Shown here one piece after another: positions 7,106 to 62,736 of a stretch of DNA of 64,000 bases (position 1 is the stretch's first letter; each line of letters opens with the position of its first letter). A program made the position numbers and the translations under genes. The notes beneath the pieces were generated by a model that was given only the letters and a program-made list of their open reading frames with translations, was not told the origin of the DNA and did not search any database. The DNA comes from Arthrobacter citreus (GTDB lineage Bacteria; Actinomycetota; Actinomycetes; Actinomycetales; Micrococcaceae), in NCBI RefSeq assembly GCF_038405225.1, contig NZ_CP151657.1, positions 2,480,001-2,544,000 on the forward strand, given 5' to 3'.

Positions 7106-7155
7106 GATGGCGGAAACTGCTGTTCCGGACGCCCGGAGCAGCAGTTTCCGCCATC
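7106..7155. terminator. bidirectional hairpin, member of the GGCAGAAAGTGCT repeat family
   Basis: The arms 7106-7128 and 7133-7155 pair over 23 bp with one G-U pair. The element sits between the convergent ends of the membrane protein gene and gntR. The arm GGCGGAAACTGCT and the trailing CCATCTCGCG resemble hairpins at 44541, 51630 and 62693, so this looks like a dispersed structured repeat used as a terminator. Confidence 0.78.
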
Positions 7156-7171
7156 TCGCGTGTGGTGGCTC

Positions 7172-7879
7172 TTAGTCCTTGGGGGATGCCGGGGTGAACC
7201 TGCTCAGGTAGCCGGACCGGGACTGGGTGACGTGGGCAGCCATCAGCTCCTGCGCCCGCACGGCGTCGCCGGAATCGACGGCTGTCATGATGAGCCGGTG
7301 CTCGCTCCATGAATCCTTGCCGCGGTTATCAACGTCGGCCGCGTAAAGCCACTCGATCTTTCCTGCCAGCTGGCGCAGCAGCGCCGTCAGAGACCGGCTC
7401 TCCGCAAGCTCCGCCACCGCCAGATGGAACGCAACGTTGAGTTCGGGCAGTTTCTCCAGCGTCCCCTCGGCTACGGCCTGGTCTCCGGCCGCAAGGATCT
7501 CGGCGATCCGGCCCCGGAAAGTCCACCACTCGTCGTCGGGCGCTCCTGCTGACAGCTGCCGGGCGGCGCGTTCGGCAGCCCGGCGGGCGGTGGCCGTCTC
7601 GACAACCGTCCGCACGGCAAAGAGGTCATCCGCCTCCTCCAGCGGAATGTTGGACACGGTGGAACCCGCATACGGCCGGGACTCAACAAAACCCTCTGCT
7701 TCGAGCGTGCGCAGCGCTTCCCGGACCGGGACGCGCGAGCTGCCGTACTTCCGGGCCAGGGCGGCCTCGGTGATGCGCTTGCCCGGAGTCAGGACACCAA
7801 AAATGATGTCCCGCCGGATTTCGTCCTCGATCCGCTCTTTGGGAAGGGCACTGTCGCTGACTGCCGGTTCAGCGGGCAA
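7172..7879 (-). CDS. GntR family regulator with FCD ligand domain
   Basis: A transcription factor of the FadR subfamily. An N-terminal winged helix (about residues 8-75, with R-K-Y-G-S-S-R-V-P-V-R-E-A-L-R-T-L recognition region) is followed by an all-helical FCD domain to about residue 215 that normally binds a carboxylate ligand, often through a metal. I place the start at TTG 7879, giving 235 residues, because AGGAG lies six bases upstream and the longer frame to 7966 runs inside the ABC gene. This start overlaps the preceding ATPase gene by 11 bases, so it is the last gene of the dpp-ggt operon. The probable target is the dppA promoter region, where two dyads matching the VanR-like TTGTATACAA pattern occur at 14887 and 14918. 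Confidence 0.88.
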   Translation of the reverse strand: MPAEPAVSDSALPKERIEDEIRRDIIFGVLTPGKRITEAALARKYGSSRVPVREALRTLEAEGFVESRPYAGSTVSNIPLEEADDLFAVRTVVETATARRAAERAARQLSAGAPDDEWWTFRGRIAEILAAGDQAVAEGTLEKLPELNVAFHLAVAELAESRSLTALLRQLAGKIEWLYAADVDNRGKDSWSEHRLIMTAVDSGDAVRAQELMAAHVTQSRSGYLSRFTPASPKD

Positions 7880-9530
7880 ATGCCGCTCCTGGAATCGCGC
7901 TGAGCAGCTCGGAGGTGTAGTCCTGCTGCGGGGCCAGGAAAACCTGGTCCGCGGTACCGCTTTCAATGACTTTTCCGGTCTTCATGACTACTACATTATG
8001 TGCAATTTGCCGCACCACTGCGAGGTCATGGGTGATGAACAGATAGGTCAGGCCAAGTCTGTCCTGCAGGTCCGCCAGCAGGGACAGGATTTGGTCCTGG
8101 ACAAGCACATCCAGCGCGGACACCGCCTCGTCGCAGATGAGCAGTTCCGGTTCCGGTGCCAGGGCCCGGGCAATGGCCACCCGCTGGCGTTGACCGCCGG
8201 AGAGCTCGTTGGGGCGCCGCTGGGCAATTCCGCGCGGCAGGGCCACCTGGTCCAGCAGCTCGGCCACCCGGTTGCGGCGGCTGACCCGGTCGCCAATGCC
8301 GAAGATGCGCAGCGGTTCATCGATCAGCCGCTCAATGCTGTAGGTCGGGTCCAGGGATCCGTAGGGATCCTGGAACACGGGCTGCACCATGCGCCGCAGC
8401 TTCCGCCGTTCCGGTCCGCTGGCCGCCGAAATGGACTGCCCGCTCACCAGGGCCTCGCCGCTGGTGGGAGTCTCCAAACCCAGCAGGATACGGGCAACCG
8501 TTGTTTTGCCTGACCCTGATTCCCCAACGACGGCGGTGGTGGTTCCCTTCTGGACGCTGAAGGACACATCGTCCAGGGCTTTCACCATCGATCCACGCTG
8601 GCCGCGCAGCTTGAACTCCTTCACCAGGGACTGAACCTGGACCACGGGGCTTCCGCCCGGCTCCTCCGGTCCGGCCGCGGCGGAGGAGTCCTCAGGGGAC
8701 AGGGCTGCCGAGATGGACGGCGCCGCCTCCACCAGGGTCTTGGTATAGGCCTCCCGGGGATCCAGCAGGATTTGCCGCGGAGTTCCTTCCTCCACGATCC
8801 GCCCATCCGCCATAACGATGATGCGGTCGGTGCGGTCCGCCGCGAGTCCGAGGTCGTGGGTAATAAACAGCAGGGTGGTCCCCCGCGCCTCCACGAGCTT
8901 TTGCAGGTGGTTCAGGATCTGCCGCTGGACGGTGACGTCCAGGGCCGACGTCGGCTCGTCGGCAATCAGCAGTTCCGGATCACCGGCCAGGCTGATCGCG
9001 ATGAGCACGCGCTGGCGCATGCCGCCCGAAAATTCATGCGGGTACTGGCCGTAGCGGCGCTCGGCGTCGGGAATTCCCGCTTCGGCCATGAGCTCGACGG
9101 CGCGTGCCTTGACGCCGGCGGAACTCTTGTCGGAGACGCCGGGCAGCCCGTTGGCCACCAGGGCGTCGGCGATTTGTGCGCCCACTTTCATGGCCGGGTT
9201 CAGGTTGGACATGGGATCCTGCGGCACCAGTCCGATGCGCCGGCCGCGGATGCCGCGCATCAGCGATTCCGGGGCAGAGGCCAGGTCATCCCCTTCCAGC
9301 AGGATGGAACCGCCCGTGATCCGTCCGCCTCCGGGCAGCAGCCGCAGCACGGCCGCGATGGTGGTGGACTTGCCGGACCCGGACTGGCCCACGATGGCTA
9401 CCCGCTCGCCGCGGCGCAGGTCCAAACTGATGCCGTGCAGCACCGGGGTTCCGGAGAAGCTGACCTCGAGGTCACGGATGGCCAGCAGCGTTTCCTGCTG
9501 ATCCGGTGATGTCTTAGCGTCCTGCTGCAT
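7869..9530 (-). CDS. dipeptide/oligopeptide ABC transporter, fused double ATPase (DppD-DppF type)
   Basis: A 553-residue protein containing two complete ABC ATPase domains in tandem. Domain one has Walker A G-Q-S-G-S-G-K-S at 49-56 and signature F-S-G-G-M-R-Q-R-V near 167. Domain two has G-E-S-G-S-G-K-T-T near 340 and L-S-G-G-Q-R-Q-R-V near 443. Each is followed by an F-I-T-H-D-L block holding the switch histidine. It would energise the DppBC permease pair from the cytoplasmic side, replacing the separate DppD and DppF subunits. Such fusions are common in actinobacteria and in glutathione importers (GsiA). It overlaps the end of ggt by 17 bases and the start of gntR by 11. Confidence 0.93.
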   Translation of the reverse strand: MQQDAKTSPDQQETLLAIRDLEVSFSGTPVLHGISLDLRRGERVAIVGQSGSGKSTTIAAVLRLLPGGGRITGGSILLEGDDLASAPESLMRGIRGRRIGLVPQDPMSNLNPAMKVGAQIADALVANGLPGVSDKSSAGVKARAVELMAEAGIPDAERRYGQYPHEFSGGMRQRVLIAISLAGDPELLIADEPTSALDVTVQRQILNHLQKLVEARGTTLLFITHDLGLAADRTDRIIVMADGRIVEEGTPRQILLDPREAYTKTLVEAAPSISAALSPEDSSAAAGPEEPGGSPVVQVQSLVKEFKLRGQRGSMVKALDDVSFSVQKGTTTAVVGESGSGKTTVARILLGLETPTSGEALVSGQSISAASGPERRKLRRMVQPVFQDPYGSLDPTYSIERLIDEPLRIFGIGDRVSRRNRVAELLDQVALPRGIAQRRPNELSGGQRQRVAIARALAPEPELLICDEAVSALDVLVQDQILSLLADLQDRLGLTYLFITHDLAVVRQIAHNVVVMKTGKVIESGTADQVFLAPQQDYTSELLSAIPGAAFAR

Positions 9531-11322
9531 ATCCCTGCGCTCCTCGTGGGTTGGCGGCGGCCTTCAACAGGCCGGTTTCGGGGTCGCTGACCACCGAGGA
9601 CAGGCGTCCAAGCGCCCAGTCTCCGGCGCGTGTGACAACATGGCCGCGGCGTTCCAGCCCGTTAATGACGTCATCTCCCAGCCGGTCCTCCACCACCGCG
9701 CCGCCGGGCGTCCACGTGCGCGGATAGAAGGAACCGGGGATGGAGGTGGTGTGCAGGGCGGGCGCGTCCACAGCCTGCTGCGGCGAATAGCCGCCCACGA
9801 GCGTGCGGAGCAGATACAGCAGCTGCCACTGGTCCTGCTGGTCGCCGCCCGGGGACCCCAGGGCGGTCACAGGCTTGCCGTCCTTGAGCACCAAAGTGGG
9901 GGTCAGGGTGGTGCGCGGCCGTTTCCCGGCCGCGAGCGTTGACGGAGCGCCCTCTTCCAGCCAGGTCATTTGCAGGCGCGATCCCAGGCAGAACCCCAGT
10001 TCAGGGATGGTCGGCGAGGACTGCAGCCAGCCGCCCGACGGCGTTGCCGAGACCATGTTGCCCCACTGGTCCACGACGTCCACGTGGCAGGTGTCGCCCC
10101 GGGTTTCCCCCGTGGGCATCACCGTTGGTTCGCCCACACCGGCGAAGGCTCCCTGTCCGGCCAGGGCCGGCGCAAAGTACTCGGTGCGCAGCGGCGGAAG
10201 GAACGGTGTGTGGCCCGGAACCGCCCCGGGCCGGAATTCGTGCGATGCCTGATCGGTGATCAGTGCGCGGCGCTGTGCGGCGTATTCCTCGCTGAGCAGG
10301 TAGTCCATGGGCACGTCGGCGTCGCCGTAGTAGGCCTCGCGGTCCGCGATCGCCAGTTTCTGGGCTTCCAGGATGGTGTGGGCCCCCAGTTCGGTGGACG
10401 GGTCCAGATATTCGTCCTCGAAGCCGGCCAGGATCGCCAGCGTCTGCAGCAGTGCCGGTCCCTGTCCCCAGGGGCCGGTCTTGGCGATGGTGTGTCCCCG
10501 GAACTCGTAGGTGAGGGCCGGTTCATAGCTTGCGCTGCCGGCAGCGAAGTCCGCCAGGGTCATGATCCCGGCGTGGTCCGAGCCGGAGGAGTGCCGGTGC
10601 GGAACGGACAGGAACTCCACGGCGGCCTGCGCCACGAATCCCTCACGCCATTCACGGCGTGCCGCATCAATGCGCTCTTCACGGGTTGCTTCCGCAGATC
10701 CGGCTGCCGCCAGCCGGTCCAGCACGGCTGCGTAGGCCTCGTTGCGGATGACTTCCCCGTCCGCCGGAATCCGTCCGTCCGGCATCCACAGGGCGGCCGA
10801 TGTGGGCCAGTGCTCGGTAAAGAGGTCGGCCACGGAGGTGATGGTGGTTCCCACCCGGCCCGCCACGGGATGGCCGTTGCGGGCGTAGCCGACGGCGAAC
10901 GCGAGCACATCGGTCAGCTCCCAGGTGCCGTGGTCCCGCAGCAGCATCAGCCATGCGTCGACGGCGGCGGGCACGGCGGCTGCCAGGGCGCCGGCGCCGG
11001 GCACCAGTTCCAGGCCCTCCGAACGGTAGTGCTCAGGCGTTGCCGCCGCCGGCGCCACACCCTGGCCCATCAGGACCACCGGTTCAGATGGATTGTCGGC
11101 GGTCACGAAGACTCCGGTCATGTCCCCGCCCGGTCCGTTCAGGTGGGGTTCCACCACATGCAGGACAAAGGCGGCGGCCGCCGCGGCGTCGAAGGCGTTG
11201 CCGCCGCGCTCCAGGACGGCCTGCGCTGAGGCCGTCGCCAGCCAGTGCGTGGACGCGCTCATGCCGAAGGTGCCCTGCAGCGTGGGACGCGTGGTGAAGG
11301 AATCGGGTGCTGTGTAAGTCAC
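9514..11322 (-). CDS. ggt: gamma-glutamyltransferase family protein
   Basis: A member of the gamma-glutamyltranspeptidase family, about 602 residues, which cleaves the gamma-glutamyl bond of glutathione and related peptides by hydrolysis or transfer. The precursor autocleaves before a threonine that becomes the N-terminal nucleophile. Here G-D-T-C-H-V-D-V-V-D near residue 405 fits that site. The N-terminal G-G-N-A-F-D-A-A-A-A and E-P-H-L-N-G-P-G-G-D-M blocks and the C-terminal S-P-G-G-D-Q region are typical. No signal peptide is evident, so it may act in the cytoplasm on imported peptides, unlike periplasmic enterobacterial GGT. The start is uncertain: GTG 11322 avoids overlap with dppC, while ATG 11367 and GTG 11370 are also in frame. 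Position inside a peptide-transporter operon supports glutathione or gamma-glutamyl peptide use. Confidence 0.87.
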   Translation of the reverse strand: MTYTAPDSFTTRPTLQGTFGMSASTHWLATASAQAVLERGGNAFDAAAAAAFVLHVVEPHLNGPGGDMTGVFVTADNPSEPVVLMGQGVAPAAATPEHYRSEGLELVPGAGALAAAVPAAVDAWLMLLRDHGTWELTDVLAFAVGYARNGHPVAGRVGTTITSVADLFTEHWPTSAALWMPDGRIPADGEVIRNEAYAAVLDRLAAAGSAEATREERIDAARREWREGFVAQAAVEFLSVPHRHSSGSDHAGIMTLADFAAGSASYEPALTYEFRGHTIAKTGPWGQGPALLQTLAILAGFEDEYLDPSTELGAHTILEAQKLAIADREAYYGDADVPMDYLLSEEYAAQRRALITDQASHEFRPGAVPGHTPFLPPLRTEYFAPALAGQGAFAGVGEPTVMPTGETRGDTCHVDVVDQWGNMVSATPSGGWLQSSPTIPELGFCLGSRLQMTWLEEGAPSTLAAGKRPRTTLTPTLVLKDGKPVTALGSPGGDQQDQWQLLYLLRTLVGGYSPQQAVDAPALHTTSIPGSFYPRTWTPGGAVVEDRLGDDVINGLERRGHVVTRAGDWALGRLSSVVSDPETGLLKAAANPRGAQGYAAGR

Positions 11323-11332
11323 GGTGCGGGGG

Positions 11333-12235
11333 TCACTTTCGGCTCGAGTTGGTGGGGTCGAGGGCATCACGCAGGGCGTCCCCGAAGAGGTTGAACGAGA
11401 GACAGATGGCAGCGATGGCCAGCCCGGGGAAGATGGCTGCGGTGGGTGAACGGAAGATGTACTGCTGGGCGTCCGAGAGCATGATCCCCAGGCTGGGGGT
11501 GGGCGGCTGGATGCCCAGCCCCAGGAAGGACAGCAGGGCTTCCCCGATCACCGCCACCGGCATGATCACCGTGGCCTGCACGATGATGGCTGAGGCGGCG
11601 TTGGGAAGCACATGGGAGAAGATGATCCTCAGCCCGGACGCGTCCATGCTCTTGGCGCCGAGCACAAAGTCGCTTTCCTTGATCCTCAGCGTTTCGCCGC
11701 GCACCACCCGGATCATTGTCGGGACCTGGGCAATGCCCAGGGCGACGGCGGCGTTGGTGAGGCTGGGACCGCTGATGGCAGCGAGCCCGACGGCGATGAT
11801 GAGGAAGGGAAACGCCAGCGTCACGTCGGTCAGGCGCGAGATGATGCCGTCCAGCCACCGCCAGTAACCGGCCAGCAGCCCGAGCGGAGTGCCGATCACC
11901 ACGGCCAGGGCCACGGACAGCGCTCCCACTTGGAGGGATGCCCGGATGCCGAACAGCAGCCGGGACAGGATGTCGCGGCCCAGGTCATCGGTGCCCAGGA
12001 GGAACCCGATGGTGCCGGGCTTCTGGAAGGGTGTTTCGAAGTGCACCTGGGACGGACTGTATGGCGCCAGGACCGGAGCCAGCAGCCCGGCGGCGACGAC
12101 GAGCGCCAGCAGGATTCCACCGGTCAGGCCCAGGGGGTTGTGCAGCAGGGATTTCAGGACCCTTCCGCGTCCGGACCCCAGGCCCTGGTCGGCGCCCTGC
12201 GGGGTGGGGGGCAGGACAGTCTCGGTAACGGTCAT
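11333..12235 (-). CDS. dppC: peptide ABC transporter permease (DppC family)
   Basis: A 300-residue inner-membrane permease with about six helices. A cytoplasmic N-terminus precedes the first helix (H-N-P-L-G-L-T-G-G-I-L-L-A-L), and the family motif G-T-D-D-L-G-R-D-I-L-S-R-L-L-F-G-I-R lies near residue 80. The EAA-type coupling loop appears as A-K-S-M-D-A-S-G near 195. It pairs with DppB to form the channel for short peptides. Its ATG overlaps the dppB stop as TGATG, so translation is coupled. It precedes ggt with a short gap. Confidence 0.92.
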   Translation of the reverse strand: MTVTETVLPPTPQGADQGLGSGRGRVLKSLLHNPLGLTGGILLALVVAAGLLAPVLAPYSPSQVHFETPFQKPGTIGFLLGTDDLGRDILSRLLFGIRASLQVGALSVALAVVIGTPLGLLAGYWRWLDGIISRLTDVTLAFPFLIIAVGLAAISGPSLTNAAVALGIAQVPTMIRVVRGETLRIKESDFVLGAKSMDASGLRIIFSHVLPNAASAIIVQATVIMPVAVIGEALLSFLGLGIQPPTPSLGIMLSDAQQYIFRSPTAAIFPGLAIAAICLSFNLFGDALRDALDPTNSSRK

Positions 12236-13188: not shown

Positions 13189-13191
13189 GGC

Positions 13192-14859: not shown

Positions 14860-14886
14860 GGCAATCCTCACATTGGAGCAGGCCGG

Positions 14887-31483: not shown

Positions 31484-31522
31484 GGAACGGCCGCCGGCGG
31501 ACACTCCGCCGGCGGCCGTTCC
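31484..31522. terminator. perfect hairpin after gudD
   Basis: Arms 31484-31501 and 31505-31522 form a perfect 18-bp GC-rich stem with a 3-base loop. It ends the kdgD-KGSADH-gudD operon 30 bases after gudD and 42 bases before the AEC transporter start. No T tract follows, so some read-through is possible. Confidence 0.72.
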
Positions 31523-44452: not shown

Positions 44453-44540
44453 GCGTTTGAGGGTAAATCGGCCGGCGACCCTGCGGAACTGCCCAGAGGT
44501 CAGCTCCTGTCCGCAACCTGATCCTTCTTCCCCATCGAAC

Positions 44541-44586
44541 TGGCAGTAAGTGCTCTTCCCGGCGCTGGGAACAGCACTTACTGCCA
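44541..44586. repeat. hairpin of the GGCAGAAAGTGCT family in a divergent gap
   Basis: The arms 44541-44554 and 44573-44586 pair perfectly over 14 bp, with an inner TTCCC/GGGAA pairing. The arm GGCAGTAAGTGCT and tail CCATATCGCGG match the hairpins at 7106, 51630 and 62693. Unlike those, it sits between two divergent gene starts, so it is not an obvious terminator here. Confidence 0.65.
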
Positions 44587-44640
44587 TATCGCGGAGGAGA
44601 GGGGAGCCATCTCGCGGAGGAGAGAGGGCGTCTCGCGGCG
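44584..44640. repeat. short tandem repeat of the hairpin tail
   Basis: CCATATCGCGGAGGAGAG at 44584 is followed by CCATCTCGCGGAGGAGAG at 44607 and a partial GTCTCGCGG at about 44629, so the unit repeats with a period of roughly 23 bp. The repeated unit is the tail that follows the other hairpins of this family. It lies 66 bp before the aldo/keto reductase start. Confidence 0.55.
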
Positions 44641-47223: not shown

Positions 47224-48011
47224 CCGGTGGCAGTGCTGCCCAGCAGGTCCACGAGCTTGGCCGGGTAATCCGTGATGATGGCGTCCACGCCGAGATCGAG
47301 CATCCGCGACATCTCGGCACGCTCGTTGACCGTGTACACCCACAGCCCCAGCCCTGCGGCCCGCACAGCGTCAGCACCGGAGGCGTCCAGGGAGTGGTGG
47401 TCCGCCACCACTCCCTGGACGCCGCGGGCGGCGCCTTCGGACAGCAGCGCCGGATCCGGAACCGATTCGACCAGCTGCCACACGGGAATGCCCGGCGCCG
47501 CACGGGCAAAAGCGCGCACGGTCGCCGGGTCAAAGGAGCTGACCGCAACGGGGTGGTGCCGGAGCAGCCGCGTCCAGTCGGGTCCCCTCAGCGCTTCGGC
47601 GATGGCTTCCTCCACACCGGGTGAGTCCTGCGGCGCCTTGATTTCCAGGTTGATGCCCAGGCCAAAGTCCACGGCGGCGGGCAGCTCGGACAGGAACAGA
47701 ATCCTTTCCCCGGCAAACTGCCCGCCGAACCAGGCCCCGGCATCGAGCCGGCGCAGTTCTGCTGCGGTAAAGGAGGTAATCGGAGCTTCGGCACGGTCCG
47801 GAAAAACCTCTGCCACGTTGGTCGTTCGGGCGCCGGTGCCGTCATGAAAGAGGAACAATTCACCGTCCGCGGTGAGGCGGACGTCAGTCTCGATCATGTC
47901 GGCGCCGGCGGCCCGGGCCTGCGCCAAGGCTACGGCAGTGTTTTCCGGGGCCAGCCCGCTGTTGCCGCGGTGTCCCACGACCATGGTGCGGTTTTCGTCC
48001 GGGGATGCCAT
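47220..48011 (-). CDS. glycerophosphodiester phosphodiesterase
   Basis: A 263-residue GDPD-family enzyme that splits glycerophosphodiesters into sn-glycerol-3-phosphate and an alcohol. Catalytic features are G-H-R-G-N-S-G-L-A-P-E-N-T near residues 13-25 (His and acidic residues), I-E-T-D-V-R-L-T near 40 and F-L-F-H-D-G near 53, giving the two catalytic His and the metal ligands. There is no signal peptide, so it is cytosolic (UgpQ-like). It is last in the ugpAEB operon, 32 bases after ugpB, which explains its role on imported substrates. Confidence 0.92.
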   Translation of the reverse strand: MASPDENRTMVVGHRGNSGLAPENTAVALAQARAAGADMIETDVRLTADGELFLFHDGTGARTTNVAEVFPDRAEAPITSFTAAELRRLDAGAWFGGQFAGERILFLSELPAAVDFGLGINLEIKAPQDSPGVEEAIAEALRGPDWTRLLRHHPVAVSSFDPATVRAFARAAPGIPVWQLVESVPDPALLSEGAARGVQGVVADHHSLDASGADAVRAAGLGLWVYTVNERAEMSRMLDLGVDAIITDYPAKLVDLLGSTATG

Positions 48012-49526: not shown

Positions 49527-50486
49527 TTACTTGATGGAACCTGCGGTGAGGCCGCGGACAATAAAGCGCTGGCCGAAAACCACCAGCAGGAGTGTGGGAA
49601 TGATGGCCAGGACGGTGCCTGCCAGGACCAGCCCGGCGTTGAAGTTGTCCGCCGAGCGCAGCTGGGTGATGCCGATCTGGATGGTTTGCATCTCAGGTGT
49701 CTGGGTGACCAGCAGCGGCCAAAAGTACATGTTCCAGGCCGAGAGGAAGGACCAGATGCCCAGTGCTGCCAGCGTGGGCTTGGACAGCGGCACCAGCACC
49801 GAAAAGAGGAACCTGAAGTGTCCGGCGCCGTCGATCCGCGCCGCTTCCCACAGCTCCATCGGGAAGGACATAAAGGCCTGCCGGAGCAGGAAGATCCCAA
49901 AACCGTGGGCCAGGAACGGCAGCACCAGGGCCGGAATGGTGTTGATCAGTCCCGTGGAGCTCATGGTCAGGTAGTTCGGAATGATGATGGCCTCGGAGGG
50001 CACCATCATGCTGCACAGGAACAGCGCAAACCAGAACGCCCGCCAGCGCACCTTCAGGAACACCAGCGCATAGGCTGCCAGCAGCGACGTGAGCAGCTGT
50101 CCCAGCGTGATCAGCCCCGCCATCACCACGGAGTTTCCGTACTGCCGGACCAGCGGAATGCTGTCCAGGGCGCCGGTGAAGTTCTCCAGCCGGAAACCGT
50201 CGAGCGGCCACAGGGACGCCGGATAGGAGTTGATGTCCCCGGGGCCCATGAATGATCCGACAAAACCGAAATAGACCGGGAAGAGGACGACGGCGGCACC
50301 GGCGGAAAGGCCAAGATACGTCAGGACACGGCCGAGGGTCAGCGGCCGGCGCTGCCGCCGGGGTGCTGCCGGAGGTTTCCGCCCGACCGGCGCTTTGGTG
50401 CCTGCTGCTCGGATGTCTGCTGTTCGGGTGCCTGCTGCCCGGGTAACGGGTGCGGGAGCTGGTGTGGGAGCTGTTGTGCGGCTCAT
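49527..50486 (-). CDS. ugpE: ABC transporter permease (UgpE/MalG family)
   Basis: A 319-residue permease with six helices from about residue 55. The coupling loop E-A-A-R-I-D-G-A-G-H near 219 is the EAA motif. The first 50 residues are a Pro/Ala/Arg-rich cytoplasmic extension containing an imperfect R-A-A-G-T-(R/K) repeat, unusual for the family. It pairs with UgpA. Its start overlaps the ugpA stop by four bases. No ATPase gene follows, so the importer must borrow a UgpC/MsmK-like ATPase from elsewhere. Confidence 0.91.
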   Translation of the reverse strand: MSRTTAPTPAPAPVTRAAGTRTADIRAAGTKAPVGRKPPAAPRRQRRPLTLGRVLTYLGLSAGAAVVLFPVYFGFVGSFMGPGDINSYPASLWPLDGFRLENFTGALDSIPLVRQYGNSVVMAGLITLGQLLTSLLAAYALVFLKVRWRAFWFALFLCSMMVPSEAIIIPNYLTMSSTGLINTIPALVLPFLAHGFGIFLLRQAFMSFPMELWEAARIDGAGHFRFLFSVLVPLSKPTLAALGIWSFLSAWNMYFWPLLVTQTPEMQTIQIGITQLRSADNFNAGLVLAGTVLAIIPTLLLVVFGQRFIVRGLTAGSIK

Positions 50487-51403
50487 CGGTAGAACACCTT
50501 TCGCTCCAGGAGGCCGAATTGGACCGCGGACACCGCTACCACGATGATCAGCAGCACAACGGCCTGGGCGGACGCATAGCCGAAGTTGGAGTTGTTGTTG
50601 GCGAAGGCCTGTTGATAGATCGAGTAGACCAGGGTGGTGGTGCTGTCCTGTGGGCCGCCCTTCGTGAGGATGTGGATCTGGCCGAAGCTTTGCAGTGCGT
50701 GGATGGTGCCGGTGACCAGCAGGAAAAACAGCTGCGGCGTCAGCAGCGGCATGATGATCGAGCGCTGCATGCGCCAGCCGTGAGCTCCATCCAGTCGGGC
50801 TGCCTCGACGACGTCTTCGGACACTGCCCCAAGGCCTGCGGAGAGAACCAGGAGGTTGTAACCCAGCTGCATCCAGATTGTCGCGATGGACACCGAGAGC
50901 AGGGCGATGCCGGGATCAGTCAGCCAGCCCACCCGGTCCAGCCCGAAGAAGGCCAGCATGCCGTTCAGCACGCCCGTGGCCTGGTTGAACATCACTCCGA
51001 AGATCACGGATGCCGTGGCCACCGAATAGGCAAAGGGCAGCGCAAACGCCGTCCGAAAAAACCGTACGGCCTTGATTTTTTGGTGCAGCAGAAGGGCCAG
51101 GGCAAGTGCGATCAGAATCGACGGTGCCACGGTCAGCACCGTGAATCCCAGCGTTACCCACATGACCGATTGAAAACCGGAGTCCGTGAACAACCGCAAA
51201 TAATGGTCCAGTCCGACAAATCCGGAGGGCCGGCCGAAAAGGTCGCTGCCCTGGAAGGACAGGAACACCGAGCGTCCCAGCGGATAGAAAAGGAATGCTG
51301 CAAATATCAGCAGCGCCGGCAGCAAATACCACCAGGCCTTGATGCCGGCCCGATCAGCGGGGCTTTTTTCGCTCCTGGCCGCCGGATTGGCGGCGACGCT
51401 CAT
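50483..51403 (-). CDS. ugpA: ABC transporter permease (UgpA/MalF family)
   Basis: A 306-residue permease, six helices, with the MalF/UgpA-type coupling loop V-V-E-A-A-R-L-D-G-A-H-G-W near residue 200. After an initial cytoplasmic part, the first helix begins near residue 25 (W-W-Y-L-L-P-A-L-L-I-F). P-S-G-F-V-G-L-D-H-Y-L-R near 57 is typical of the periplasmic entry loop. It heads the ugpA-ugpE-ugpB-GDPD operon. The 285-base gap upstream holds a hairpin belonging to the DUF3817 gene and no obvious operator. Confidence 0.91.
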   Translation of the reverse strand: MSVAANPAARSEKSPADRAGIKAWWYLLPALLIFAAFLFYPLGRSVFLSFQGSDLFGRPSGFVGLDHYLRLFTDSGFQSVMWVTLGFTVLTVAPSILIALALALLLHQKIKAVRFFRTAFALPFAYSVATASVIFGVMFNQATGVLNGMLAFFGLDRVGWLTDPGIALLSVSIATIWMQLGYNLLVLSAGLGAVSEDVVEAARLDGAHGWRMQRSIIMPLLTPQLFFLLVTGTIHALQSFGQIHILTKGGPQDSTTTLVYSIYQQAFANNNSNFGYASAQAVVLLIIVVAVSAVQFGLLERKVFYR

Positions 51404-51629
51404 GCTCCGGTCCCGGGGAGTGGCGCCCCGGCCTGGTTTGCAGCACTAAGACAGTGGACGGGGCCATCCTGCCACTGCAAACCGGTGAAGAAAATGCTCA
51501 TTGCGTTCTTTTCCGTCCATAGTTCCGAGGCGCACTATTGCATTGTTTTGTGCGCCGCTCGCCACGGTATCCACGGGGTTGAAACGAAAAGAAAACGGAA
51601 GGTGAACATTCGGGACGCCTGCCCCGAGA

Positions 51630-51675
51630 TAGCAGAAGGTGCACTTCCCGGAGCTGGGAAGTGCACCTTCTGCTA
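51630..51675. terminator. hairpin of the GGCAGAAAGTGCT family after the DUF3817 gene
   Basis: The stem 51630-51649 with 51656-51675 pairs perfectly over 20 bp with a 6-base loop. It lies 14 bases past the stop of the minus-strand DUF3817 gene, where it would end its transcript, and upstream of ugpA. The arm AGCAGAAGGTGCA is a diverged member of the family. Confidence 0.75.
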
Positions 51676-51688
51676 GTTCGGCGGTGGG

Positions 51689-55456: not shown

Positions 55457-55513
55457 CTCTTCCCGTTCCATTACTTCGTTGTCGGACGGACGATCCTCGG
55501 TATGTGCGGATTG

Positions 55514-55523: not shown

Positions 55524-55541
55524 TCACATACATACAGCCGG

Positions 55542-55555: not shown

Positions 55556-55607
55556 CACCCTAAAGGACTGTGAAGCAAGTAACAATTGTGACTGAAGGAC
55601 CTGTAAC

Positions 55608-55635
55608 TTGACGTGAGTCACGGTTCCCCTAGAAT
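55608..55635 (+). promoter_or_regulatory. predicted tcuA promoter
   Basis: TTGACG (55608-55613) and TAGAAT (55630-55635) with a 16-bp spacer form the best sigma70-like promoter I see in the window, about 60 bp before the tcuA start. A dyad TTGTATACAT at 55656-55665, likely an operator, lies just past the predicted start site. Confidence 0.62.
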
Positions 55636-55655
55636 CGTTTCCATTCACCGAGGCT

Positions 55656-55665
55656 TTGTATACAT
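55656..55665. promoter_or_regulatory. candidate FCD-regulator operator on the tcuA side
   Basis: TTGTATACAT, nine of ten bases of the TTGTATACAA dyad, lies 30 bp before the tcuA start and about 20 bp past the predicted -10. A roadblock position suits repression. Confidence 0.58.
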
Positions 55666-55694
55666 GGGTATGCAACCAACATCAGGAGCAGCAC

Positions 55695-57179: not shown

Positions 57180-57292
57180 TGATCCTCCGGGGACCTGCGG
57201 TGCAGGTCCCCGGGCAGGGCTCCCGTAAAGTTGGCTCCGTCGGTTTCGGTTTTACGCATGCCCTTTCCCCTCCGCACTTCCTAGGACGCCCC

Positions 57293-57973
57293 ATGGCCCA
57301 AGCAGCAGCACGCATTGACGGTGAGGCCATCTTCGCGACCCTGCGCAGCGAGATCCTCTCCGGCGTCCATCAGCCGGGCACCCCCATGCGGGAGATCTCC
57401 CTGGCGGAGCGCTTCGGTGTATCGCGCACCCCGGTCCGGGAAGCCCTCTCGCGCCTGCAGCAGGAGCGGCTGCTGGAACGGGTGGCCCGCGGGCTGCAGG
57501 TCCCCCAGGTGGAACCGGCACAGGTGATCCAGATCTATGACATGCGCATCCTGCTGGAGGAGGAGGCCGCCGGCCAGGCCGCCCGTGCCCGCCAGTTCAC
57601 CGATCTGATGCGCCTTGAAGCGCTGTTGGAACGGGACCGGCAGCTTCAGGCTCCCGATGACCGCACCAGGATCACCACCAACCTGGAGTTCCATGCAGCC
57701 GTGTGGAAGTGCGCGCACAACCCCATCCTGACGGACCTGCTGGAACGCCTGTCCACCCATTTGGTGCATGCTCCGCGCTCCACCCTTTCCGTGGACCAGC
57801 GCTGGGATGCCGCCCTCGATGAGCATGCCGCCCTGATCAGCGCCATCGACAGCCACGACGTGGACGGTGCCCGCGCCATTGCCCGCGCCCATATGGAAAC
57901 AGCCCGCAGCATCCGTCTGCAGCTTCTGCGCGAGCGCGCCCTCGAGCAGCCGCTGCCTCCCTACAGCCGGTAG
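57293..57973 (+). CDS. GntR family regulator with FCD domain, probable tcu/tct repressor
   Basis: A 226-residue regulator of the VanR-like branch. The winged helix is in 8-75 with A-E-R-F-G-V-S-R-T-P-V-R-E-A-L-S-R-L-Q, and the FCD domain follows to about 215, with the acidic/His residues in T-N-L-E-F-H-A-A-V and L-D-E-H-A-A-L. It lies 113 bases after tcuA in the same direction. Two TTGTATACAA-type dyads in the tctC/tcuA gap are likely targets. Tricarballylate or citrate-like acids are reasonable ligands. Confidence 0.87.
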   Translation: MAQAAARIDGEAIFATLRSEILSGVHQPGTPMREISLAERFGVSRTPVREALSRLQQERLLERVARGLQVPQVEPAQVIQIYDMRILLEEEAAGQAARARQFTDLMRLEALLERDRQLQAPDDRTRITTNLEFHAAVWKCAHNPILTDLLERLSTHLVHAPRSTLSVDQRWDAALDEHAALISAIDSHDVDGARAIARAHMETARSIRLQLLRERALEQPLPPYSR

Positions 57974-58036
57974 CCGCCGGTCCCGCCCCAAGGCGGGAAA
58001 CAGGTGGCGCGGACGCGCGGCAGCCCAGGGCGGAAA

Positions 58037-58945
58037 CTACTTCCGGTAGGTCAGCGGCTCGGTGATCCACTCCAGGTCCGTCCACCGGTCCAGCCGCTGC
58101 AGGATGGTGAAGCTGGAACGGCAGAACTCCCCCACCGCATGCTGCGGATCGGGATAGGACAAGGCGTCCTCCAGGCTGAACAGGAACTCACTCTCCGCGG
58201 CCAGGAAATATGCCTTCTCGGGCGACAGCAGCGTTCCGTAGCTGCCGATGCTGGCCACGAACGGATACGGCAGCGCATAGAAGGAGGGCTGGGGGTTTTT
58301 GTTGTCGCCGGGCCAGAACCCGAACTCGCAGAATTTTTCGTCAAAGCTGTTTTTGCCGATCTGGTCCGACCCCGAATACGGTGCCGGCTGCCCGCTGAAA
58401 ACATTGCCGGAAAGGTCCATGGTGCCAAACCAAAACGCCGGCATGTCCACCTTTCCGCGCATGGGAGCGAGGAATCCGCCCAGGGAACGGTAAGCGAACT
58501 GCAGGTTGGCCAGGAACAGTTCAACGGCATCCCGGTCATACGAGTGATGCTTGGTGTCCACATCAAACGGCGTGGGGTCGTAAAACTCCTGCGGGGCGGT
58601 GGTGATGGGCGTGGGCGTGCCGATGTAGTCGAGCGCCGTGATGAGTTGCCGGTGGAAGTCCGCGACAGCCAGCCCGTCGCCGAGAGGGATCCGGGTCCGG
58701 GTTCCCCGGCTGTTCTGCACATCGACATGATGCTGCGCCAGATTGAAGTAGATCTCGAAGTTGCAGTCCTCCGCCGGGATGATGCCGGTTCCAATGCCCT
58801 GAAGGCTCAGGTCCAGCCGCACATGCGCCCATTCGGGGCGTCTATAGCTGCGCGCCAGCTTCACCTTCCCCGCCATCTGCAGGAACATGTGCAGGGTGTC
58901 GGCAGTGTCCTGCCATTCCGGATAGTTCAGGAATCTCTTTTCCAT
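58037..58945 (-). CDS. DUF5996 family protein
   Basis: A 302-residue protein of the DUF5996 family. Recognisable pieces are W-Q-D-T-x-D-T-L-H-M-F-L-Q-M-A-G-K-V-K-L near residues 11-30, P-x-x-A-H-V-R-L-D-L-S near 40, a hydrophobic mid region and the closing Y-A-L-P-Y-P near 222. The family occurs in many phyla without an assigned function. No signal peptide or membrane segment is evident. ATG 58945 has GAGAGGTGAG upstream. It is convergent with the FCD regulator and divergent from the nucleoside hydrolase. Confidence 0.85.
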   Translation of the reverse strand: MEKRFLNYPEWQDTADTLHMFLQMAGKVKLARSYRRPEWAHVRLDLSLQGIGTGIIPAEDCNFEIYFNLAQHHVDVQNSRGTRTRIPLGDGLAVADFHRQLITALDYIGTPTPITTAPQEFYDPTPFDVDTKHHSYDRDAVELFLANLQFAYRSLGGFLAPMRGKVDMPAFWFGTMDLSGNVFSGQPAPYSGSDQIGKNSFDEKFCEFGFWPGDNKNPQPSFYALPYPFVASIGSYGTLLSPEKAYFLAAESEFLFSLEDALSYPDPQHAVGEFCRSSFTILQRLDRWTDLEWITEPLTYRK

Positions 58946-59095
58946 GGCGCTCACCTCTCGAAAGGCGGTGCTGCTCGGTCCCGTGCGGCAGAATACCGCA
59001 GCAGAGGTCCTTCCAGTCTGTGGTGCCCTCCGCGCCCGGTCAACGCGGGAACCCGCGCTGGTTACACTGAAACTCCAACCTCCGAAAGCCGCCGC

Positions 59096-60064
59096 ATGCA
59101 GACCTCTCCCCCTTCCCGCACCGCTGTCCTGGCCGACGTCGACACCGGCATGGACGATGCGCTGGCGCTGGTGTTCCTGGCCCGGGATCCCCGGATCAGC
59201 CTTTTGGCCGTGACCTGCGTGGCCGGCAACACCGATGTGGACCAAGTGGTGAGCAATACCCTGAATGTGCTTTATGCCGCCGGGTCCGGCGACGTTCCCG
59301 TCGCCCGCGGCGCCGAGCGGCCGCTGATCAATGACCCGCGGAACGCCCATGCCTTCCACGGCGCCAACGGGCTGGGCGGTCTGGAGCTGCCGCAAAGCCC
59401 GCATGCCCCCAGCGCCGTGGCCGCCGTCGAACTCATGCACCGCACCATCGACGTGGCCGCCGTTCCGGTCACGCTGCTGGCGCTGGGTCCGCTGACCAAC
59501 GTTGCCCTCTTCCTCCGGGCATATCCGCAGACGGCGCGAAAGCTGGAGCGGATCGTGTTCATGGGAGGTTCAGCCGGAATAGGCAACGCCACGTCGCATG
59601 CCGAATTCAACGCATGGCACGATCCCGAGGCCCTGGCCATCGTCATCCACAGCGGCATTCCCACCGTCATGTACGGGCTCGACGTTTTCCTCCAGGCCAC
59701 CCTGACGCCCGGACAGTACCTGCCGCTGGCGGAGGCCGACGACGACGGCGCCCGGCTGGTTGGCGCCATCCTCGCTGCGGGCGGGCGGCGCGGGCAGGCC
59801 GAACCCCAGCCGGTGACCATCGGCGACGCCGGCGCCGCCTGCCTCGTGGCCGTTCCGGAGACGGTGCAGCTGCAGCAGTATCCGGTGCGCGTGGAACTGA
59901 CCGGCCACAGCCGGGGGCAGACCCTGGTGGACCGCCGGCTGGAACCGGGCGAAAGCGAGCACCACGGCGACGCCGGTCCGGTGCCGCTCATCGACGTCGC
60001 CCTGGGTCTGGACCAGCCGCTGATGGCGCAGACGTTCCTCCACACCGTCCGAAGTGGCCGATAA
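59096..60064 (+). CDS. nucleoside hydrolase (IunH family)
   Basis: A 322-residue inosine/uridine-preferring nucleoside hydrolase that cleaves the N-glycosidic bond of ribonucleosides. The Ca2+-binding D-V-D-T-G-M-D-D-A-L-A-L near residues 14-25 is the family signature, with A-L-G-P-L-T-N-V-A near 130 and N-A-W-H-D-P-E-A near 178, where Asp and His of the catalytic site lie. Length is normal. ATG 59096 follows the region where the longer frame from 58004 overlaps DUF5996 and is rejected. Substrate preference cannot be told. Confidence 0.9.
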   Translation: MQTSPPSRTAVLADVDTGMDDALALVFLARDPRISLLAVTCVAGNTDVDQVVSNTLNVLYAAGSGDVPVARGAERPLINDPRNAHAFHGANGLGGLELPQSPHAPSAVAAVELMHRTIDVAAVPVTLLALGPLTNVALFLRAYPQTARKLERIVFMGGSAGIGNATSHAEFNAWHDPEALAIVIHSGIPTVMYGLDVFLQATLTPGQYLPLAEADDDGARLVGAILAAGGRRGQAEPQPVTIGDAGAACLVAVPETVQLQQYPVRVELTGHSRGQTLVDRRLEPGESEHHGDAGPVPLIDVALGLDQPLMAQTFLHTVRSGR

Positions 60065-60213
60065 CACTGCCGTTTCCTCTTGTTCAGGCGGGCTGTCCGA
60101 CCCTAGGCTGAAAACGGCTCCGTTTTGTTCTGCAGCCGAACAAACCGCGCCTCGCACCGTCGCCCCACCGCGACACCCCAGACACTCCACCCCCACCACA
60201 AGGAGCGCCCCTT

Positions 60214-61530
60214 TTGAGCAACCCCGCCAGGGCCCAGGGCACCCAGGCCTCGTACCGTCCGGGATTCAAGTACATCCTGATGCTTGGCGCGCTGGCGGCC
60301 CTTCCGGCCGTCACCACCGACATGTACCTGCCGTCGCTGCCCACCGTGGCCTCCGATCTGCAGACCAGCCAGGCGGCGGCCCAGTTCACTATGTCCGGAA
60401 CCCTGATCGGCGCCGCCGTCGGGCAGCTCGTCATCGGGCCGTTTTCGGACCGCTTCGGGCGGCGGCTCCCGCTGCTGATCGGCATCAGCCTGCATGTGAT
60501 TGTCTCCCTGCTGTGCGCCGTCGCTCCCGGCATCGGCACCCTGATTGGGCTGCGGGTCCTGCAGGGGTTCTTTAACGCCGCCGCCGGCGTGGTCGCCATC
60601 GCCGTCATCCGTGACCGCTTTGTGGGCTCCGACGCCGCGCGGCTGCTGTCCCGGCTAATGCTGATCATTGGCCTTGCCCCGCTGTTGGCCCCAACCATTG
60701 GCCAGGCCGTGGCGGGCATTTGGCAGTGGCGTGCGGTGTTCGTGGCACTGGCCCTGATCGGGGTGATCCTGGTGCTGATTGTCTGGCGGTTCATGCCGGA
60801 GACCCTGCCGGCCGAACGGCGCCGCACCAGCAGCGGACCGGGGGCGTTCCGCGGTTACCGGGTGCTGCTGCGGGACCGGCATTTCCTCGCACTGGCCTTC
60901 ATTCCCGGCCTCGGCATGGCCGTCATCATGAGCTACGTGGTGGGTTCCCCGTTCGTGTTCCAGGACGAGTACGGCCTGACGGCGGGGCAGTACGCCCTCG
61001 TGTTTGCGGTCAACGGCGCCGGCATGGTCCTTTCCGCACAGGCTAATGCCGCACTCGTGCAGCACGCATCGCCGATGAGCATCCTGCGCATTGCCGTTCC
61101 AATTCTGCTGGGACTGTCCCTGCTGCTGCCGGTCCTCATCATCACCAACCTCGGCGGCGTGTTCGGCCTGGCCGCAGGGTTGTGGCTGGTGCTGGGCATG
61201 CACGGGCTGATCGCGGCGAACGCCACCGTCATGGCCCTGGGCAACTACGGCCACATGGCCGGATCCGCCGCTGCGATGATCGGCGCGCTGCAGGTGGGCG
61301 TGGCCGGCGTCGTCAGCCCCCTGGTGGGAGTGTTCGGCGGAAAAGCGCTGGCCATGTCCGCTGTGATTATCGGCTGCTGCGTGCTGATGACGCTGATCCT
61401 CGCCACTGCGACCCCGGCGTACCGCCGCGGGGGCATGGCCAAGCTGGAGGCTTCCGGCAGCGCCGGAGCGGTGCCGGAACCCGACGCCGCAGCGGATACC
61501 TCACCGGAAACGACCACCGGCCAGGCCTAA
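60214..61530 (+). CDS. MFS multidrug efflux transporter, Bcr/CflA subfamily
   Basis: A 438-residue major facilitator with 12 helices. The Bcr/CflA signature T-D-M-Y-L-P-S-L-P near residue 34 and the MFS loop motif G-P-F-S-D-R-F-G-R-R near 76 are present. Drug:H+ antiporters of this group export bicyclomycin, chloramphenicol-like drugs and sometimes cysteine. It starts at TTG 60214 with AAGGAG upstream; no ATG is suitably placed. The C-terminal tail is acidic and probably cytoplasmic. The actual cargo is unknown. Confidence 0.88.
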   Translation: MSNPARAQGTQASYRPGFKYILMLGALAALPAVTTDMYLPSLPTVASDLQTSQAAAQFTMSGTLIGAAVGQLVIGPFSDRFGRRLPLLIGISLHVIVSLLCAVAPGIGTLIGLRVLQGFFNAAAGVVAIAVIRDRFVGSDAARLLSRLMLIIGLAPLLAPTIGQAVAGIWQWRAVFVALALIGVILVLIVWRFMPETLPAERRRTSSGPGAFRGYRVLLRDRHFLALAFIPGLGMAVIMSYVVGSPFVFQDEYGLTAGQYALVFAVNGAGMVLSAQANAALVQHASPMSILRIAVPILLGLSLLLPVLIITNLGGVFGLAAGLWLVLGMHGLIAANATVMALGNYGHMAGSAAAMIGALQVGVAGVVSPLVGVFGGKALAMSAVIIGCCVLMTLILATATPAYRRGGMAKLEASGSAGAVPEPDAAADTSPETTTGQA

Positions 61531-61603
61531 ACTCAGCGGAGCACTCTGCACGGCACGGAGCCATTTGAAATATGTTCCTCGTCACAACGATTAGGATTCG
61601 TTC

Positions 61604-62626
61604 ATGTACTTCGATCTGCCCGCCGACCAGCTCGCGGCCTACACCAGTTCCCAAATCCGCCCCGCCGACTTCGAGTCGTTCTGGGAGGAGACCCTCGCCG
61701 AGGCGCGGTCCCACCCGCTGAACCTCACCGTCACCGCCGAACCCACCGTTTTGGCCACCGTGGACGTCTACGATGTCCAGTTCAACGGCTGGAATGGCGA
61801 GCCGGTCCGCGCCTGGCTGCGTTTGCCGCACGGGACGTCCGAACCCCTGCCCTGCGTCGTGGAATTTGTCGGATACGGCGGCGGCCGGGGCGAACCGCAG
61901 GACAATCTGCTGCTGGCCAGTTCCGGCTTCGCGCACCTGCAGATGGACACCCGCGGGCAGGGCGCCGGCTGGAGCCGGGGCGCTACGGCGGACGGCGCCG
62001 GCAGCGGCGGCCCGCAGGTTCCCGGCCTGATGACCCGGGGCATCCTGGATCCGCACACCTACTACTACCGCCGGCTGTTCACCGACGCAGTCCGGGCGGT
62101 CCAGGCAGCACGCGAACTGGACTGGGTGGACCCGGACCGGGTCGCGCTCACGGGCATCAGCCAGGGCGGCGGCGTCGCGCTGGCCACCGCGGCACTGTGC
62201 CCTGATGTGCGCGCCGTCGTCGCACGGGTTCCCTTCCTCTGCGATTTTCCCCGTGCCCTGCAGATTACGGATGCCTATCCGTACCGGGAAATTGGTGCTT
62301 TTCTGTCCATCCACCGCACCGAAGCCGCACGGGCCCAGCAGACGCTGCAGTACTTCGACGGCGTCAATTTCGCTCAGCAGGCCACGGTTCCGGCGATGAT
62401 CACCGTGGGACTGATGGATGCCACCACTCCCCCGTCCACGGTGTACGCCGCTTACAACGCCTACGCCGGGCCGAAGCAGATCACCGCCTGGCCGTTCAAT
62501 GGTCACGAGGGCGGCGGACCCGAGGACGACGTCGCCGCGATTAGGTTCCTGCGGGACATGACGGCGCCGGATCCGTCAGCTGCGGCTGGGGAACCCGAAG
62601 TCGGGCAAACCGCAGCGGCCATGTAA
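61604..62626 (+). CDS. acetylxylan esterase / cephalosporin-C deacetylase family hydrolase
   Basis: A 340-residue AXE1-family alpha/beta hydrolase. Diagnostic features: P-A-D-F-E-S-F-W-E near residue 20, M-D-T-R-G-Q-G near 118, the H-T-Y-Y-Y-R-R-L-F-T-D-A-V-R-A-V block near 154, the nucleophile elbow G-I-S-Q-G-G near 184 and the His in F-N-G-H-E-G-G near 301. These enzymes deacetylate xylo-oligosaccharides or cephalosporin C and are cytosolic. It follows the efflux gene after 73 bases with AGGA upstream. Confidence 0.9.
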   Translation: MYFDLPADQLAAYTSSQIRPADFESFWEETLAEARSHPLNLTVTAEPTVLATVDVYDVQFNGWNGEPVRAWLRLPHGTSEPLPCVVEFVGYGGGRGEPQDNLLLASSGFAHLQMDTRGQGAGWSRGATADGAGSGGPQVPGLMTRGILDPHTYYYRRLFTDAVRAVQAARELDWVDPDRVALTGISQGGGVALATAALCPDVRAVVARVPFLCDFPRALQITDAYPYREIGAFLSIHRTEAARAQQTLQYFDGVNFAQQATVPAMITVGLMDATTPPSTVYAAYNAYAGPKQITAWPFNGHEGGGPEDDVAAIRFLRDMTAPDPSAAAGEPEVGQTAAAM

Positions 62627-62692
62627 CGCTCCCTCTCCCCCGCGAAGCCTTCCCCCGGAGAGGTCCTTCCGGGCAGATCCCGCCCGCACAAC

Positions 62693-62736
62693 GGCAGAAA
62701 GTGCTCCTCTGAATGCTGAGAGGAGCACTTTCTGCC
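62693..62736. terminator. hairpin of the GGCAGAAAGTGCT family, bidirectional
   Basis: Arms 62693-62710 and 62719-62736 pair perfectly over 18 bp with an 8-base loop. It lies between the convergent ends of the AXE1 gene and the small membrane protein gene. The arm GGCAGAAAGTGCT is the best consensus copy of the family, followed by CCATTTCGGCG. Confidence 0.8.

What the first reader, a model, noticed from the sequence alone, without database searches (positions are those of the whole stretch)
7106..62736. A dispersed family of near-perfect hairpins with a shared arm and tail
Four hairpins (7106-7155, 44541-44586, 51630-51675, 62693-62736) have arms GGCGGAAACTGCT, GGCAGTAAGTGCT, AGCAGAAGGTGCA and GGCAGAAAGTGCT. 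All are followed by C(C/T)A-N2-TCG and preceded by a C-rich CCCG/CCCC stretch, so the similarity goes beyond the stem. Base changes in the arms are compensated on the other side, which implies selection for pairing. Two sit between convergent genes and one after a lone gene, as terminators; one sits between divergent starts. This looks like a lineage-specific structured repeat that serves as a terminator.
Basis: partly seen in the sequence, partly recalled or inferred. Interest (0 to 1): 0.7.

Follow-up and report, generated by a model that had tools for sequence, protein, structure and literature searches.

The report
Dispersed palindromes at gene ends
A short palindromic DNA repeat sits just behind many genes of this Arthrobacter, probably marking where transcripts from both sides end; related bacteria carry it in their own sequence "dialects", which suggests that gene-end signals can be copied around a genome and kept alike.

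Summary
The four hairpins are copies of one palindrome: 64 bp, with a 56-bp core of 18-bp arm, 20-bp middle, 18-bp arm. The genome has about 29 copies; other Arthrobacter carry up to about 50. In four genomes, 73 of 87 copies lie within 48 nt of a called stop codon and 48 of 87 lie between convergent genes, against 15-17% of intergenic DNA. Arm changes are compensated beyond shuffles. In relatives the same gene junctions keep the element, carry a different hairpin, or lack one. Carrier clades A and B differ in consensus, and at shared junctions each clade carries its own, so orthologous copies are hardly more alike than unrelated ones: concerted evolution or repeated copying. Related near-fixed-length sets occur in Frigoribacterium (middle unpaired) and three other genera. 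No REP transposase domain was found in the 29 Arthrobacter genomes searched.

Best reading: a REP/MITE-like non-autonomous palindrome, old in the order, that in Arthrobacter serves as a two-way terminator. Termination is not shown. The papers searched gave no report of this family.

The parts
7099..7162 (+). Family element 1 (64-bp palindrome; hairpin 7106-7155) between the 6346-7053 (+) gene and a GntR/FCD-family gene 7172-7966 (-), convergent
   Evidence: G010 (90% identity at this locus) lacks the insert, and G003 and G021 have a tight junction
44532..44595 (+). Family element 2 (hairpin 44541-44586) between a glyoxalase-like gene (-) and an aldo/keto reductase gene (+), divergent: the exception
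   Evidence: my gene caller missed the glyoxalase gene and called the place tandem
51621..51684 (+). Family element 3 (hairpin 51630-51675), 9 nt behind the stop of the DUF3817 gene (51689-52144/52273, -), upstream of an ABC permease gene (50483-51403, -)
62683..62746 (+). Family element 4 (hairpin 62693-62736) between an acetyl xylan esterase gene (61604-62626, +) and a DUF6518-like ORF (62755-63381, -; just under the Pfam cut-off), convergent
44583..44638 (+). 2.5 tandem copies of a 23-nt unit holding the right outer arm (GCCATCTCGCGGAGGAGAG...) directly behind element 2

Best explanation
The hairpins are copies of a dispersed, non-autonomous palindromic repeat (REP/MITE-like, without a REP transposase) with an 18-20-18 bp plan. 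SHOWN by sequence: about 29 copies; placement behind stop codons, about half in convergent pairs; upkeep of arm pairing; other hairpins at the same junctions in relatives; a separate consensus in each clade; near-fixed length; related sets in other genera of the order. INFERRED: transcribed from either side, the element forms a strong hairpin followed by a short broken U-tract (UUUCUG) and stops both converging transcripts. INFERRED: copies spread or overwrite one another (insertion beside an existing terminator, then loss of the old one, or gene conversion), which gives lineage dialects. The copying machinery is unknown.
For: 29 copies. Covariation in 24 ungapped copies: 91.7% of cells paired, 14 of 25 pairs with changes on both sides, 57 doubly changed cells against 19.9 in shuffles, 0 of 500 shuffles as high on any of the five measures. 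Convergent context 14/26, 12/23, 11/20, 11/18 in four genomes against 15-17% of intergenic bp of the same loci, P 1e-5 to 1e-4 for each (the genomes share sites, so these are not independent). Arm-to-arm length, free between 44 and 74: 83 of 87 elements exactly 56, four 57 (which removes one double count). Arm-motif counts: 38 (own), 106, 101, 95, 63, 59 in five congeners, 0-8 in the 11 other congeners sampled, 0-5 in 228 genomes of other genera (reversed control 0-4). At one junction all 29 genomes of the genus searched have a hairpin within 45 nt of the stop, but only clades A and B and close kin carry the family there. In 400 kb sampled from G027, a non-carrier, 22 strong hairpins showed no shared family. 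25 of 29 copies have no second strong hairpin within 200 nt. Shared A/B junctions: orthologs 0.438 identical in unselected columns, cross-clade non-orthologs 0.456, same-genome copies 0.66 and 0.61.
Against: No transcript data. Four of 29 copies lie beside another hairpin, one window copy lies between divergent starts, and my caller puts 3 of 87 in divergent contexts (it counts that window copy as tandem), so not every copy can be a needed terminator. The U-tract is poor. No target-site duplication was established. The copy at 7106, apparently a recent gain, is among the furthest from the consensus (0.69), unlike a fresh insertion. Two sites (3329526, 3813143) are present in G000, G010 and clade B but not found in G004, G013 and G003, which needs losses or repeated gains.
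Confidence: 0.52

Rival explanations
1. A DNA-level site: two 18-bp half-sites at fixed spacing bound by an unknown protein (nucleoid, gyrase-like, condensin or termination factor) acting where transcription converges. Dialects would follow changes in that protein.
For: Near-fixed 56-bp length with a changing middle; middle unpaired in the Frigoribacterium family (3-7 of 10 pairs, arms 14-18 of 18, all 9 measured elements exactly 56 bp); 56-59 bp in the G528, G059 and G106 sets; clade-wide dialects.
Against: Within one genome each copy has its own arm variant matched on the other side (pair 23-42 shows all four Watson-Crick types), which a shared binding specificity would not produce. In Arthrobacter the middle is 77-89% paired. 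Non-family hairpins of other lengths take the same junction in relatives.
Confidence: 0.2
2. A selfish small palindrome (MITE/REP) that collects behind stop codons only because insertion is harmless there; pairing is kept by hairpin-templated repair of the arms, not by selection.
For: Family structure, high copy numbers confined to some congeners, lineage dialects, tight empty junctions in relatives, elements beside another hairpin at four sites.
Against: 25 of 29 copies have no other strong hairpin nearby, while relatives without the family often have one at the same junction; several junctions are kept across both clades; no Y1_Tnp domain in the 29 genomes searched; no duplication of target sites shown.
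Confidence: 0.16
3. Ordinary intrinsic terminators whose likeness is convergent: selection for a good two-way hairpin gives similar sequences independently.
For: Position, two-way symmetry, compensated stems, canonical terminator-like hairpins at the same junctions in relatives; compensatory evolution of terminators is documented in Bacillus cereus (PMC5381666, passages seen).
Against: Outer arms CGAGAT/ATCTCG and exact length are not needed for termination yet are strongly conserved; the arm motif is near background in 11 of 16 congeners sampled; 22 strong hairpins in 400 kb of the non-carrier G027 differ in sequence and length.
Confidence: 0.07

Closest known systems
REP sequences with RAYT transposases (Enterobacteria, Pseudomonas; recalled)
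   Same: Short extragenic palindromes, tens of copies, behind genes, hairpin-forming, lineage-specific families
   Different: No Y1_Tnp/RAYT domain in the 29 genomes of the genus searched; no GTAG-type head (feature recalled); near-fixed total length; not asymmetric
DNA uptake sequence pairs forming terminators in Neisseriaceae, with species 'dialects' (PMC3630211, passages seen)
   Same: Inverted pairs associated with terminators; sequence dialects that follow phylogeny
   Different: Uptake sequences number in the thousands and also lie in coding sequence; here 38 arm matches genome-wide, and in the window the only unpaired arm-like matches have 5 mismatches
Bidirectional intrinsic terminators (e.g. 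Bacillus cereus, PMC5381666, passages seen)
   Same: Hairpin between convergent genes, compensatory stem changes
   Different: Repeat family with near-fixed length, conserved outer arms and clade-wide likeness; weak U-tract
MITEs / Correia-type miniature elements (recalled)
   Same: Small inverted-repeat units without coding sequence, fixed size
   Different: No target-site duplication shown, no parent element known (not searched for as such)

Membership tests
Intrinsic transcription terminator | Stable G+C-rich hairpin close behind a stop codon | tested here: met
   Fold z -7.4 to -11.1 for the four window copies; 73 of 87 elements in four genomes within 48 nt of a called stop
Intrinsic transcription terminator | U-tract directly behind the stem | tested here: inconclusive
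   T frequencies behind the GC stem in G000: 0.73, 0.96, 0.71, 0.08, 0.73, then 0, 0: short, broken and itself paired
Intrinsic transcription terminator | Transcripts end there | not testable with these tools
   No RNA data
REP sequence (RAYT type) | Dispersed extragenic palindrome, many copies | tested here: met
   29 copies in G000
REP sequence (RAYT type) | REP-associated tyrosine transposase in genome or lineage | tested here: not met
   PF01797: 0 of 29 genomes of the genus; rings in 5 of 14 control genomes
MITE | Terminal inverted repeats and fixed size | tested here: met
   18-bp arms; 56 bp in 83 of 87, 57 in four
MITE | Target-site duplication / clean empty site | tested here: inconclusive
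   Tight empty junctions in relatives, CTAG-like repeats around the insert at 2487099 and 3247207, but overlapping stop codons explain these too
MITE | Autonomous parent element with the same ends | not tested
   Only indirect: the 16 arm matches listed for G000 (of 38 counted) all lie in known copies
DNA uptake sequence | Very many single copies, also inside genes | tested here: not met
   38 arm matches in 3.88 Mb; the two unpaired window matches have 5 mismatches
Rfam family | Match at gathering score | tested here: not met
   0 in the window; only sub-threshold microRNA-type hairpins at one copy

The most novel reading that the evidence does not exclude
Gene-end hairpins across an actinobacterial order belong to one old class of spreading, sequence-homogenised elements. 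Each lineage holds its own dialect and overwrites inherited terminators with it. The 18-20-18 plan is read by an unknown trans-acting protein that drives copying and/or termination.
Probability: 0.25. Interest if true: 0.8.

Novelty: new variant of a known kind. Interest (0 to 1): 0.6.

Why it matters
Terminators are normally treated as single-site features that evolve by point changes. Here a shared sequence occupies dozens of gene ends, differs between clades at the very same junctions, and keeps a near-exact length. If confirmed, terminators can be a copied, concertedly evolving family without the known REP transposase. The A and B clades give matched junctions on which copying, homogenisation and termination can be tested directly. 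It would also help to annotate gene ends in high-GC actinobacteria, where U-tract searches do poorly (last point recalled).

Tried and rejected
Uptake-sequence idea: rejected, arms are few and paired. RAYT-driven REP: no Y1_Tnp in 29 genomes. Plasmid or phage origin: no match, one query against each collection. Rfam: nothing at the gathering score (one search covers one copy). A tree from strand-mixed loci was wrong and is replaced. Target-site duplications: CTAG-like repeats around the 7106 and 3247207 inserts looked suggestive, but the ancestral stops overlap as CTAG, so I do not claim them. A Rho-type C-rich leader: the 20 nt on both sides are C-rich and G-poor (C 0.41-0.55, G 0.09-0.23), noted but not tested. 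Third clade's GCAGGTGCC hairpin as another repeat family: an exact 18-base pattern finds it in 12 of 29 genomes, once each except three times in G002, and not always at the 12870 junction. That test is too strict to exclude a varied family, so I sampled 400 kb (20 x 20 kb) of G027: 22 hairpins of score 15 or more, of varied length and without a common arm (best likeness 12 of 14 bases, against 13 in the window). No family is evident, but about 3 copies at most would be expected in such a sample if it had 29. Single R2 matches in other genera mostly look like plain terminators. A helper import failed silently through a module-name clash; it was redone.

Known weaknesses: gene calls are from my own scorer, not Prodigal. 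Copies were gathered with models or motifs, so I re-measured identity on columns outside the motif, but length uniformity may be favoured by that gathering. Clade-B copies are a sample (23 in G022 and 20 in G016, against 95 and 59 arm matches). Ortholog pairs were assigned by projected position within 250 nt; one G004 copy is paired with two neighbouring G022 copies, and one pair (3210552, identity 0.42) is misregistered. In 'family' was counted with or without two-sided anchoring, and the site 2022307 in G010 counts as 'no hairpin' although one search shows a family copy with an indel there. Places 1980655, 1834578, 1380066, 2335688 and 3881526 were dropped as weak or non-family before the counts. 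R2 scored only 19 candidates per genome.
Full report
WHAT IS THERE. They align without gaps in one register. Consensus of 24 ungapped copies: CCCGCGAGATGGCAGAAAGTGCnCTTCCCAGCGCTGGGAAGnGCACTTTCTGCCATCTCGCGGG. The window is bases 2480001-2544000 of a single 3.88-Mb contig.

COPY NUMBER. A covariance model of the four (R1) finds 31 distinct places at E below 0.001. Two are ordinary A/T-flanked terminator-like hairpins, leaving 29 family copies. Six of the 29 lie within 81 kb around the window; 29 of 5000 random placements cluster as much. Of 59 genomes searched (the own genome included), 27 have R1 matches and 32 have none, so the model does not simply ring on any hairpin. Counting the arm motif in 245 genomes of the family gives 38 in the own genome and 106, 101, 95, 63 and 59 in five congeners. 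The 11 other sampled congeners have 0-8. Of the 228 sampled genomes of other genera, 82 have at least one match, 0-5 each (reversed-pattern control 0-4 each).

STRUCTURE. On 24 copies of one genome, 91.7% of cells pair, 14 of 25 pairs have changes on both sides and 57 cells are doubly changed, against 19.9 in shuffles; 0 of 500 shuffles reach any of the five measures, and sliding the partner by 1-3 columns drops pairing to 41-47%. Pair 23-42 shows all four Watson-Crick types. Between 13 orthologous copies of G000 and G004, 17 pairs changed on both sides and stayed paired, and 19 were kept through a one-sided change; 58 changed pairs involve an unpaired state, some of them from one misregistered copy. 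Pairing is thus kept but not perfect.

LENGTH. When the partner arm was sought freely at total lengths of 44-74, 24 of 24 G000 elements, 18 of 19 in G004, 22 of 24 in G022 and 19 of 20 in G016 were exactly 56, the rest 57 (one search had counted one G000 element twice). The loci had been chosen by model or motif, which may favour equal length, and a few G000 copies have small indels outside or inside this count (2022307, 2071040). Non-family hairpins at the 12870 junction vary in length.

PLACE. Of 87 elements in four genomes, 73 lie within 48 nt of a called stop codon. Contexts are convergent in 14 of 26 (G000), 12 of 23 (G022), 11 of 20 (G016) and 11 of 18 (G004), where convergent gaps make up 15-17% of intergenic bases of the same loci; divergent contexts are 0, 2, 0 and 1, and five elements lay too near a locus or gene-call edge to classify. 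Binomial P is 1e-5 to 1e-4 in each genome, not independent because sites are shared. In the window itself, strong hairpins (score 14 or more) lie in 3 of 5 convergent gaps (two are this family), 2 of 23 tandem and 1 of 8 divergent; 3 convergent and 17 tandem gaps under 30 nt were not scanned. Elements 1 and 4 are convergent, 3 is behind DUF3817 in a tandem pair, and 2 is between divergent genes.

THE SAME JUNCTIONS IN RELATIVES. For 29 G000 sites compared with four relatives, the classes family / other strong hairpin / none were: G004 14/2/6, G010 13/3/5, G013 3/7/10, G003 2/9/9. A further 2, 2, 7 and 6 junctions were anchored on one side only, and the remaining sites gave no usable alignment. 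One G010 'none' is really a family copy with an indel. At the 7106 junction, G010 (90% identity there), G003 and G021 have overlapping or nearly overlapping stops; G013 has a different hairpin there. This suggests a gain in the G000 line, but that copy is far from the consensus (0.69). At 1859128 and 2952587 the family element stands beside a hairpin that relatives also have. 25 of 29 copies have no second hairpin of score 13 or more within 200 nt.

ONE JUNCTION IN 29 GENOMES. Downstream of the acetyl-CoA-synthetase-like gene (site 12870; name by my reading, not by a call) every one of the 29 genomes of the genus searched has a hairpin within 45 nt of the stop. Its sequence follows the tree: G000, G010, G004 and G003 have closely similar family elements; G005, G016, G022, G023 and G025 share another form (CGAGATAACAGAAACTGCCCGTATC...); others have other hairpins, for example with GCAGGTGCC or AAAAGGTGC arms. 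In the third clade I found no sign of a repeat family, but with limited power: the exact GCAGGTGCC pattern occurs once in 11 and three times in 1 of the 12 genomes that have it, and 22 strong hairpins in 400 kb of G027 share no common arm.

DIALECTS AND CONCERTED CHANGE. Clade A (G000, G004, G010) and clade B (G005, G016, G022, G023, G025) have different consensus sequences over the 64 bp (consensus computed for G000, G004, G010, G022, G016). Eight G000 sites have an ortholog among the clade-B copies fetched. Using only columns outside the search motif in four genomes: same-genome copies 0.66 (A) and 0.61 (B) identical, within-clade orthologs 0.77 (16 pairs) and 0.91 (10), cross-clade copies at different sites 0.456 (1872), cross-clade orthologs 0.438 (20). 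Shuffling partners among those 20 pairs gives 0.419, and 54 of 2000 shuffles reach the observed value, so a slight site-specific trace may remain. The junctions are shared, but the sequences follow the clade. Either copies were homogenised, or both clades re-inserted at the same favoured junctions.

WIDER KIN. Two Frigoribacterium genomes carry TGAACCGGCAGGAAGTGC-N20-GCACTTCCTGCCGGTTCA. Nine elements checked are all 56 bp, with arms paired 14-18 of 18 but the middle only 3-7 of 10; of ten, six are in convergent contexts, three tandem and one inside a called ORF, and in four a gene's called end overlaps an arm end by 3 nt. The first two were found with a pattern that fixed the spacing; the others were found by single arms. 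A second model (R2) over 297 genomes of the order matches 30, from 18 of 94 genera, the own genus included. Three genera hold small sets of near-fixed length with CGA...TCG ends: G528 (7 places, 58-59 bp), G059 (4, 56-57 bp), G106 (4, 57 bp); one G528 place falls inside a called ORF. Their likeness to R2 is what found them, so common descent is likely but not proved. Many single matches look like plain terminators.

HOW IT PROBABLY WORKS. Each converging transcript would meet a hairpin of about 18-28 bp right behind the stop codon, followed by UUUCUG. Two-way termination fits the symmetry, the place and the exchange with other hairpins. It does not by itself explain the outer arms, the near-exact length or the clade-wide dialects; copying of the whole unit does. 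The copying agent is unknown: no Y1_Tnp domain in the 29 genomes of the genus searched, while the same search rings in 5 of 14 control genomes.

LITERATURE. Ten searches. Exact motif strings gave 31 papers, of which the 15 listed concern eukaryotes or their viruses by title. Passages were read in PMC12306157 (its abstract and outline), PMC5381666, PMC3630211 and PMC2267715. None of the listings or passages seen describes this family; subscription papers are not covered.

Noticed in passing
L353, L351, L359, L363, L350, L364, L358, L360, L362 (1501-1556 each): Frigoribacterium family of 56-bp spaced inverted repeats with an unpaired middle; in some cases the arm-end TGA or TCA overlaps a neighbouring gene's called end.
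   Followed up: partly
L395-L401 (G528), L402-L405 (G059), L406-L409 (G106): Other genera of the order with small sets of similar palindromes of 56-59 bp with CGA...TCG ends, each set with its own wording.
   Followed up: partly
L410-L414 (G353), about 1465-1605: A separate repeat of 47 bp (CCGCGGCAAGTGCG...CGCACTTGCCGCGG) with a second pair of arms CGCACTTT/AAAGTGCG around it, in another family of the order.
   Followed up: no
window 44583-44638: Tandem repeat of the element's right outer arm directly behind element 2, 2.5 copies of 23 nt.
   Followed up: no
window 4662-4708, 31484-31522 and 47382-47423: Three further near-perfect hairpins of unrelated sequence: one between convergent genes, one in a tandem gap, one not placed.
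   Followed up: no
G000:C1:2487099-2567679 (window 7099 to beyond its right end): Six of 29 copies within 81 kb, a mild cluster (29 of 5000 random placements as dense).
   Followed up: partly
L157 (G013) 2150-2300 and L164 (G001) 1250-1560: Related AACTGCAGCTGC-type hairpins beside the left gene of the 7106 junction in two other congeners (in G001 the right neighbour differs); possibly another family.
   Followed up: no
L093 3228-3291: Nesterenkonia sp. F has a palindrome with the same 44-nt core plan (the plan was part of the search pattern) near sequence homologous to the 2544898 locus.
   Followed up: partly
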